This document shows positions 26,722 to 27,308 of a stretch of DNA of 64,000 nucleotides, one piece after another. Each line of letters opens with the position of its first letter. Positions within the stretch are counted from its first letter, which is position 1. This stretch comes from a bacterium (GTDB taxonomy: Bacteria > Bacillota > Clostridia > Lachnospirales > Lachnospiraceae): assembly GCA_023664305.1 (NCBI GenBank), contig JAMPFT010000006.1:1-64000 (forward strand), in the 5' to 3' direction. The position numbers and the translations under genes are program-made. The notes under the pieces were generated by a model. The model was not told the origin of the DNA. It was given only the letters and a program-made list of their open reading frames with translations, and did no database searches.

Positions 26722-26742
26722 AATGAATGTATAAAGATATAA

Positions 26743-26771
26743 TTGACAATTTTATGTTGCATACTTATAAT
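26743..26771 (+). promoter_or_regulatory. Consensus sigma-A promoter of the antisense small RNA
   Basis: TTGACA (26743-26748), a spacer of exactly 17 bases, then TATAAT (26766-26771). Both hexamers are perfect consensus, the strongest promoter in the window. It points right, away from miaB, with expected initiation near 26778, and reaches an intrinsic terminator about 105 bases later without any open reading frame. Confidence 0.88.
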
Positions 26772-26777
26772 ATAAAC

Positions 26778-26882
26778 ATAAGGAAAGCACTGCGACAAGC
26801 GGTTGGCTTCCGGTATAGAATGTTTAAATAATTTACTTATCTAAACAGCCGTCACTTTGCCGAGTGGCGGTTGTTGCTTTTT
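26778..26882 (+). ncRNA. Predicted small antisense RNA (type I antitoxin candidate)
   Basis: A transcript of about 105 nt is predicted between the perfect promoter at 26743-26771 and the intrinsic terminator at 26844-26882. It carries no ribosome binding site or frame. It is fully complementary to the 3' part of the minus-strand toxin-candidate transcript, covering its last ten codons plus about 75 bases of 3' untranslated region. Its bases 26782-26793 and 26799-26808 also repeat, as near-identical inverted copies, in the 5' leader of the same message. The 3'-end overlap resembles the BsrG/SR4 and TxpA/RatA systems of Bacillus. The gap 26722-27308 otherwise holds only promoters. Confidence 0.7.
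26844..26882 (+). terminator. Intrinsic terminator of the small RNA
   Basis: AACAGCCGTCACT (26844-26856) pairs with AGTGGCGGTTGTT (26863-26875) with a six-base loop and two G-T wobbles, followed by GC and five T residues. It functions on the plus strand; on the minus strand the same DNA encodes the last codons of the small peptide. Confidence 0.85.
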
Positions 26883-26929
26883 ACAATTACTGTAACAGTA
26901 AATCTACCAATATGTAGTGTAATCCGCAT
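26852..26929 (-). CDS. 25-residue peptide, type I toxin candidate
   Basis: A 25-codon frame begins MRITLHIGRFTVTVIVK and ends in a polar, basic tail (SNNRHSAK). The core is rich in beta-branched hydrophobic residues with flanking Arg/Lys, as in small membrane-acting or amyloid-like toxic peptides, although it is shorter than a full transmembrane helix. GGAGG stands eight bases before the ATG but is sequestered in a perfect hairpin, CCTCC-GAA-GGAGG on the message (26938-26950). A near-consensus promoter lies upstream on the same strand. Locked Shine-Dalgarno, long-range end-to-end complementarity and an antisense RNA are the marks of type I toxins. Toxicity itself is inference. Confidence 0.65.
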   Translation of the reverse strand: MRITLHIGRFTVTVIVKSNNRHSAK

Positions 26930-26955
26930 AAGCCTCACCTCCTTCGGAGGATGTC

Positions 26956-26987
26956 AGCCAACCGCCTGCCGCTATGCAGTGCTTCCC
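26956..26987 (-). promoter_or_regulatory. 5' leader arm complementary to the 3' end of the same message
   Basis: On the minus strand the leader of the 25-residue peptide contains GGGAAGCACTGC and GCGGTTGGCT (plus-strand 26976-26987 and 26956-26965). These pair with GCAGTGCTTTCC and AGCCAACCGC in the 3' region (plus-strand 26782-26793 and 26799-26808), 22 pairs in total with one G-T. Such 5'-3' foldback keeps other type I toxin messages translationally inactive until processed. Confidence 0.65.
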
Positions 26988-27007
26988 ATCCTTGTTAAGG
27001 ACTTTTT

Positions 27008-27036
27008 ATTGTATCAAATCAGCTACTTTCCGTCAA
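27008..27036 (-). promoter_or_regulatory. Near-consensus promoter of the 25-residue peptide
   Basis: On the minus strand TTGACG (plus-strand 27031-27036) is followed after 17 bases by TACAAT (plus-strand 27008-27013). Initiation is expected near 27001, giving a leader of about 70 nt before the ATG at 26929. It points toward the small RNA promoter, so the two transcripts converge and overlap. Confidence 0.8.
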
Positions 27037-27093
27037 TTGCTTTACAAAATATTGACATTATTCGTATTTTTTTGAAAGTATTTCACTCAATTC

Positions 27094-27122
27094 TTTTCAC
27101 CTGATTTATATTGTGTTATACT
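27094..27122 (+). promoter_or_regulatory. Candidate promoter of the phosphoesterase gene
   Basis: TTTTCA (27094-27099), a 17-base spacer and TATACT (27117-27122). The -10 box is good and the -35 box weak. The leader to the ATG at 27309 is about 180 bases, purine-rich near the end, with no recognised riboswitch. Confidence 0.45.
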
Positions 27123-27308
27123 TTGTTACGGGTTTTTCCCTTATTCCTGTTTGCGGAGTTGAAAAGAAAGTCAGGAAACGGATGAAGCTTCATGGAAATG
27201 TTGGGAAATAACGGTGGGAACACTTTTCCAAAAAAGTAATTCTTCTGCAGGGAAAAGGAAAAAGGCAATAGAAGCGTTTCCCAAAGAGAGAGAAAAGGAC
27301 AAAAAAGC

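What the first reader, a model, noticed from the sequence alone, without database searches (positions are those of the whole stretch)
26722..27308. Complete type I toxin-antitoxin-like module between miaB and the phosphoesterase gene
Seen directly: a 25-codon minus-strand frame with a ribosome binding site locked in a CCTCC/GGAGG hairpin; a near-consensus promoter for it (TTGACG-17-TACAAT); on the other strand a perfect TTGACA-17-TATAAT promoter and an intrinsic terminator defining a frameless RNA of about 105 nt that is antisense to the end of the small gene; and 22 complementary bases linking the 5' leader and 3' region of the peptide message. Established: type I toxins such as BsrG/SR4, TxpA/RatA and Hok/Sok combine a short hydrophobic peptide, a sequestered Shine-Dalgarno, 5'-3' foldback and an overlapping antisense RNA. 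Inference: this is such a system with a peptide core (MRITLHIGRFTVTVIVK) unlike the classical toxin families I know.
Basis: partly seen in the sequence, partly recalled or inferred. Interest (0 to 1): 0.85.

Follow-up and report, generated by a model that had tools for sequence, protein, structure and literature searches.

The report
Gut-bacterial toxin-antitoxin cassette, new peptide family
A short stretch of DNA in a gut bacterium looks like a self-poisoning switch: it encodes a tiny, selectively conserved peptide and, on the opposite strand, an RNA that probably silences it, and the same RNA cassette carries unrelated peptides in other places.

Summary
One pattern taken from the antisense RNA gives 135 distinct places in hand, mostly in Clostridia; 98 carry an intact family peptide by script. 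The 25-27 residue peptide is under purifying selection in that frame only (pN/pS 0.11 and 0.39). The antisense promoter has both consensus hexamers in 76 of 103 modules scored. The 5'-3' foldback covaries and persists where its sequence has changed. Twenty of the 135 places keep the antisense RNA without the toxin gene; 45 of 45 usable toxin-side places keep the antisense RNA, in genomes that had been chosen by that RNA. The same chassis also carries Hol_Tox-like helical peptides; one contig holds such a module next to two of this family. Best reading: a type I toxin-antitoxin module with an undescribed cationic, strand-like peptide on an exchangeable RNA chassis. The family peptides scanned reach no Pfam, NCBIfam, PHROGs or PADLOC cut-off, and the RNA no Rfam one. 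Toxicity, transcription and silencing are untested.

The parts
26852..26929 (-). Toxin candidate frame, 25 aa plus stop: MRITLHIGRFTVTVIVKSNNRHSAK
   Evidence: purifying selection on the family
26938..26950 (-). Shine-Dalgarno hairpin: GGAGG (26938-26942) paired with CCTCC (26946-26950)
   Evidence: SD stem columns pair in 86.8% of cells over 51 sequences
26956..26988 (-). Leader arm of the 5'-3' foldback
26782..26811 (-). 3' arm of the foldback (the same DNA encodes the antisense RNA's 5' hairpin on the + strand); possible mRNA terminator (inferred)
27008..27036 (-). Promoter of the peptide mRNA, TTGACG-17-TACAAT with TG before the -10
26743..26771 (+). Promoter of the antisense RNA, TTGACA-17-TATAAT
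   Evidence: both hexamers perfect in 76 of 103 family modules
26778..26881 (+). Antisense RNA, about 103 nt (ends inferred from promoter and terminator)
26844..26875 (+). Intrinsic terminator of the antisense RNA, overlapping the 3' end of the frame

Best explanation
A chromosomal type I toxin-antitoxin module. Shown from sequence: a peptide frame under purifying selection; a leader with a hairpin that locks the Shine-Dalgarno; a covarying 5'-3' foldback; on the other strand a near-perfect promoter and a terminator for a roughly 100-nt RNA complementary to the 3' half of the peptide mRNA. Inferred: the mRNA (about 230 nt, from near 27001 to near 26772) folds into a translationally closed form; the abundant antisense RNA pairs with its 3' half and keeps it untranslated and/or has it degraded; when the antisense RNA is lost or outpaced, remodelled or trimmed mRNA is translated. 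The cationic, amphipathic, strand-like peptide then most likely harms the cell's own membrane. The RNA chassis is exchangeable: elsewhere the same leader, foldback and antisense RNA carry Hol_Tox-like helical peptides.
For: Purifying selection in one frame only: pN/pS 0.11 (37 sequences) and 0.39 (33), other frames 0.98-4.58. Foldback covariation: 14 pairs and 110 cells changed on both sides against 7.2 and 32.2 in shuffles; own arms bind better than foreign arms, 0 of 2000 permutations; foldback kept in divergent loci. Antisense promoter consensus in 76 of 103; antisense structure 96.1% of cells paired. Loss pattern: 20 of 135 places antisense-only, 45 of 45 usable toxin-side places keep the antisense RNA. 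Peptide-only scan: 16 of 16 type A stretches hold a full peptide and 15 of 16 an antisense promoter downstream. Chassis shared with Hol_Tox peptides: L164 and L265 pass the Pfam cut-off; L061, L112 and L232 carry similar peptides on the window-type leader.
Against: No expression, toxicity or silencing data. The peptide lacks the strong hydrophobic helix usual in type I toxins (mean maximum 15-residue hydropathy 1.31 against 2.49 for five Hol_Tox-like peptides). The Shine-Dalgarno hairpin is closed with or without the foldback, so what opens it is unknown. The antisense RNA's 5' end resembles the leader and would compete with it for the 3' arm. Two of five covariation measures for the antisense RNA do not exceed shuffles (147/500 and 93/500). 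Antisense-only loci could also mean that the RNA has its own function. The toxin-side genomes were picked by the antisense pattern. The antisense promoter regex found only 1 of 5 type B viral loci.
Confidence: 0.76

Rival explanations
1. An RNA regulator: the plus-strand RNA is a trans-acting small RNA with its own targets, and the minus-strand transcript is its sponge (its leader mimics the RNA's 5' hairpin), the peptide being a minor product.
For: 20 of 135 places keep the RNA without the toxin gene; the leader and the RNA's 5' end share sequence; the GACAAGCGGTT loop core is invariant among the sequences aligned, although that core was part of the search pattern.
Against: Strong frame-specific selection on the peptide; the toxin can be replaced by an unrelated small peptide in the same chassis, which a sponge would not need.
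Confidence: 0.1
2. The module is right, but the peptide is a secreted or released antibacterial or signalling peptide that acts on neighbours rather than on its own cell.
For: Cationic and amphipathic, mean net charge +4.9 over 76 peptides. [quoted passage not shown]
Against: No signal sequence is evident in the 25 residues, and antisense-only loci with no observed toxin-only locus fit an internal poison better.
Confidence: 0.06
3. A miniature inverted-repeat mobile element (the two foldback arms as its ends) whose frame is incidental.
For: The arms are inverted repeats in DNA; copies occur singly and in tandem; the nearest relative lacks the module at this site.
Against: Both promoters lie outside the arms and are conserved; the frame is under purifying selection; no clean insertion boundary or target duplication was seen.
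Confidence: 0.03
4. Chance arrangement of promoter-like and hairpin sequences.
For: Single-locus motif scans have a non-zero background.
Against: Conservation, selection and covariation across dozens of loci.
Confidence: 0.01

Closest known systems
Hol_Tox (PF16935) and PepG1 (NF041589) toxin modules
   Same: Same RNA chassis: L164 and L265 (above the Hol_Tox cut-off) have the foldback; L061, L112 and L232 combine the window-type leader and antisense RNA with similar helical peptides.
   Different: The peptide is unrelated in sequence, less hydrophobic and strand-like. PepG1 similarity of L164 is below its curated cut-off (22 against 70 bits).
TxpA/RatA, BsrG/SR4, and C. difficile RCd modules
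   Same: Small peptide mRNA and an antisense RNA overlapping its 3' end in convergent orientation (PMC6563280, sections 4 and 5; BsrG/SR4 detail recalled).
   Different: Those toxins are membrane peptides of 28-60 aa (B. subtilis) or 34-59 aa (C. difficile) per that review; here 25-27 aa, no sequence match found, and a conserved 5'-3' foldback.
AapA/IsoA (H. pylori) and Hok/Sok
   Same: 5'-3' long-distance interaction of the toxin mRNA and transient SD-sequestering hairpins (PMC6733600, passages; Hok/Sok as cited there).
   Different: In aapA3 the SD is sequestered by the 3' end in the full-length RNA; here the SD has its own stable hairpin and the 3' end pairs with the leader upstream of it. 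The antisense RNA here covers the 3' half.
Fst/par (pAD1)
   Same: Convergent toxin and antitoxin RNAs sharing repeats (recalled).
   Different: Fst uses direct repeats and a bidirectional terminator (recalled); here the repeats are inverted, and the terminator stem has G-U pairs on the antisense strand that are mismatches on the mRNA strand.

Membership tests
Type I toxin-antitoxin system | Small protein-coding gene maintained by selection | tested here: met
   pN/pS 0.11 and 0.39 in frame, codons 2-17
Type I toxin-antitoxin system | Own promoter and terminator for an RNA antisense to the toxin mRNA | tested here: met
   By sequence; transcription itself not tested
Type I toxin-antitoxin system | Peptide is toxic to its own cell | not testable with these tools
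   Only indirect: antisense-only loci and no toxin-only locus among 45 usable toxin-side places
Type I toxin-antitoxin system | Antisense RNA prevents toxin synthesis | not testable with these tools
   Complementarity only
Hol_Tox (PF16935) | Peptide matches the profile | tested here: not met
   No match for the window peptide nor for the family variants scanned
Hol_Tox-type RNA chassis | Leader-3' arm foldback with an antisense RNA overlapping the end of the frame | tested here: met
   side by side in L232
AapA/Hok-type mRNA control | 5'-3' long-distance pairing of the toxin mRNA | tested here: met
   94.1% of 1472 cells paired, covariation
AapA/Hok-type mRNA control | SD occluded by the 3' end and opened by 3' trimming | tested here: not met
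   Modelled SD stays closed after removal of 45 nt from the 3' end
Membrane-helix type I toxin | Strongly hydrophobic helical segment | tested here: not met
   Strand moment 2.39 against 1.65 shuffled, helix moment 1.33 against 1.57; hydropathy 1.31 against 2.49; no structure model was obtained
Known Rfam RNA family | Covariance match at gathering score | tested here: not met

The most novel reading that the evidence does not exclude
A modular type I chassis of gut Clostridia into which structurally unrelated toxins are swapped (helical Hol_Tox peptides, other short hydrophobic peptides, and this family), with the family found here being a type I toxin that works as a cationic amphipathic beta-hairpin instead of a membrane helix.
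Probability: 0.45. Interest if true: 0.82.

Novelty: new variant of a known kind. Interest (0 to 1): 0.72.

Why it matters
Type I modules are hard to find because both toxins and RNAs diverge. Here a recognisable RNA chassis (foldback leader, terminator over the end of the frame, near-consensus antisense promoter) can be searched directly and reports its payload. It yields a peptide family of gut Clostridia that carries no annotation in the one annotated record that held it, a natural swap experiment (one chassis, unrelated peptides), and a candidate departure from the helical type I toxins described in the passages seen of PMC8309996. It also makes a mechanistic question testable: why does the antidote's 5' end copy the toxin leader?

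Tried and rejected
Chance: rejected by conservation, selection and covariation. Known ncRNA. Known protein family: the window peptide and the family variants scanned reach no cut-off in Pfam, NCBIfam, PHROGs or PADLOC; a sub-threshold YrzI match of one variant (E 0.15 and 0.098) was not pursued beyond a literature search that listed no paper with that word. Mobile inverted-repeat element: see rivals. Peptide-profile scan of viral contigs: failed, alignment too variable. tblastn: no phage record with the 25-aa query, two with the 27-aa query, and one Vescimonas replicon among plasmids with either. Prevalence: strict pattern in 3 of 393 genomes of the order; covariance model in 21 of 393 of the class, two of them strong (window genome and G045) and 19 weaker, some of which are other chassis and some plain terminators. 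Literature: searches listed no description of this peptide or chassis; the library lacks most subscription papers, so absence from print is not shown. A structure prediction was not obtained.

Full report
The observation. The predicted peptide mRNA folds far better than shuffles (z -7.7, 0 of 200), as does the plus-strand RNA (z -3.5, 0 of 200). No Rfam family matches at gathering score, and no Pfam or NCBIfam family matches the peptide.

Relatives. BLAST of the region gave matches in 7 of 99 genomes, the window's own included: one at 93% identity (L005), L006, L007 (antisense RNA kept, toxin gene decayed), L008, and two that are not modules (L009 only a terminator-like stem, L010 a coding match). 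A Vescimonas replicon and two phage records also matched; no feature is annotated there in the Vescimonas record, and the phage records have no annotation at all. Of 140 matches in hand: 5 duplicates; 98 with an intact family peptide by script; 5 with a leader that the script did not credit, of which L053, L102 and L123 show a family frame and L061 and L112 a Hol_Tox-like peptide on reading; 2 disrupted (L084, L089); 20 antisense-only; 6 running off a contig; 4 without the terminator stem (two of them in Mesorhizobium and a Binatia MAG, probably chance). The script can credit an antisense-only copy with the toxin of a tandem neighbour (L011's first copy), so 98 is slightly generous; one of the 20 (L016) is a frame-broken toxin rather than a deletion. 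Most loci are MAG contigs, where misassembly can mimic a deletion; L011 lies in a complete replicon.

The peptide is a protein. Two main length classes, MRITLHIGxFTVTIIVKSxNRHSAK and MPITLTFHxxxxTxTIxVKSxNRHSAK, share a core. In codons 2-17 pN/pS is 0.11 (37 sequences) and 0.39 (33); the other frames give 0.98-4.58. In the C-terminal codons, which overlap the antisense terminator, it is 0.69 and 0.63. A scan of viral contigs with the peptide's first codons alone, no RNA feature asked, gave full peptides in 16 of 16 type A stretches (five of them the same peptide) and 5 of 6 type B; by regex an antisense promoter follows in 15 of 16 and 1 of 5. Of the other four type B loci, L256 and L257, the two whose sequence I printed, show weaker promoter-like sequence by eye.

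The RNAs are selected. On 51 aligned modules the foldback plus the inner SD stem pairs in 94.1% of 1472 cells; slid registers give 32-53%; 14 pairs and 110 cells change on both sides against 7.2 and 32.2 in shuffles. Leaders bind their own arm at a mean of -45.8 kcal/mol against -39.7 for foreign arms, and 0 of 2000 permutations reach the observed sum. Relatedness inflates such controls. Divergent loci (L248, L256, L257) keep the foldback with other sequence. The antisense RNA structure pairs in 96.1% of cells over 53 sequences; two of five measures do not exceed shuffles. Its promoter has both perfect hexamers in 76 of 103 modules scored (spacers 16-19, duplicates not removed); toxin upstream regions average 9.4 of 12 over 82 modules against 7.6 after shuffling. 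Three of the 82 (L063, L108, L114) carry GAAC-N4-GTTC, which I recall as the LexA-box form of Gram-positive bacteria.

Which half is lost. 20 of 135 distinct places are antisense-only. From the toxin-leader side, 31 of 40 genomes matched. In the loci fetched from them there are 49 distinct places, 45 with room downstream, and all 45 keep the antisense RNA: 41 by regex, L199, L200, L215 and L231 by eye, L199 diverged. Two listed matches that look like chance (G852 C2, G833 C16) were not fetched. The genomes had been chosen by the antisense pattern, so the asymmetry is suggestive only.

Shared chassis. In the window's own genome two weaker model hits carry other peptides: L162 (MYVTYSDLIQIGIFIVALAGLLYQIFRGKK) and L164 (MVTYSDMIQTGIFIVALISLCYKIFRDKKK). 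L164 passes the Hol_Tox cut-off (30.1 against 23.3 bits) and L162 does not (17.1); L164 resembles PepG1 and ComI below their cut-offs; L265 passes Hol_Tox (32.6). L061, L112 and L232 have similar peptides on the window-type leader; L061 and L112 give no Pfam match at E 1 and L232 a sub-threshold one (13 bits), but the L061 and L232 peptides align with L164 and L265 peptides (45% and 54% identity). In L232 the Hol_Tox-like module is followed by two modules of this family within about 1 kb. In 15 chassis tested the leader-arm duplex beats 100 shuffles with z from -2.4 to -8.6; that script's promoter regex missed several, L162 and L164 included.

The window's site. miaB matched in 50 of 61 genomes of the genus; loci were available and examined for 30, the window included. 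Only the window carries the module downstream of miaB; the phosphoesterase gene follows miaB in 4 of the 30. The closest relative (L166) has roughly 130-140 bp of unrelated DNA where the window has about 430 bp with the module, with no clean insertion boundary.

Mechanism. Shown: gene, promoters, structures, selection, complementarity. Inferred: closed mRNA, antisense-driven silencing or decay, toxicity, membrane target. For the peptide: strand moment 2.39 against 1.65 in shuffles, helix moment 1.33 against 1.57, maximum hydropathy 1.31 against 2.49 for five Hol_Tox-like peptides, net charge +4.9 on average (76 peptides). No structure model was obtained. Unresolved: the Shine-Dalgarno hairpin is closed in all three forms modelled, and the antisense 5' end resembles the leader it would compete with.

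Literature. PMC6563280 (outline, sections 4 and 5) describes C. difficile and B. subtilis modules with membrane toxins and convergent antisense RNAs. PMC6733600 (passages) describes the 5'-3' interaction and SD-sequestering hairpins of aapA3. PMC8309996 (passages) describes membrane-associated type I toxins, helical where structure is mentioned in those passages. PMC7699646 (passages) concerns C. difficile modules. PMC9045289 (passages) reports a TSS for an unannotated holin-like toxin gene of C. acetobutylicum. None of the passages seen describes this family.

Noticed in passing
G000 C7:50807-50909 (L162) and C44:26369-26457 (L164): The window's own genome holds two further modules with Hol_Tox-type peptides and an antisense RNA of similar design.
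   Followed up: partly
L232 200-1400: Tandem array: one Hol_Tox-like module followed by two modules of the window's family, all on the same chassis.
   Followed up: partly
L063, L108, L114 toxin promoters: GAAC-N4-GTTC boxes overlap the toxin promoter, suggesting SOS control of some members (3 of 82 scored).
   Followed up: partly
L142, L151, L153: Weak model hits with other short hydrophobic peptides (MEYVLAFALVVMVIVLIIKK and others) and a leader-arm foldback: probably further payload classes.
   Followed up: partly
L011 1383-1472: Extra antisense RNA copy with its own promoter just upstream of a complete module in Vescimonas fastidiosa.
   Followed up: no
L088 4372-4470: In this antisense-only locus the otherwise conserved U-G pair of the terminator stem has become U-A, as if freed from the toxin's stop codon.
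   Followed up: no
L005 1541-1757: The 93% identical relative lacks three bases in the Shine-Dalgarno hairpin region; its toxin may be poorly translated.
   Followed up: no
MPITLTFHLFGFTFTIKVRK (L012, L059): Sub-threshold resemblance to YrzI small proteins (E 0.15 in Pfam, 0.098 in NCBIfam).
   Followed up: no
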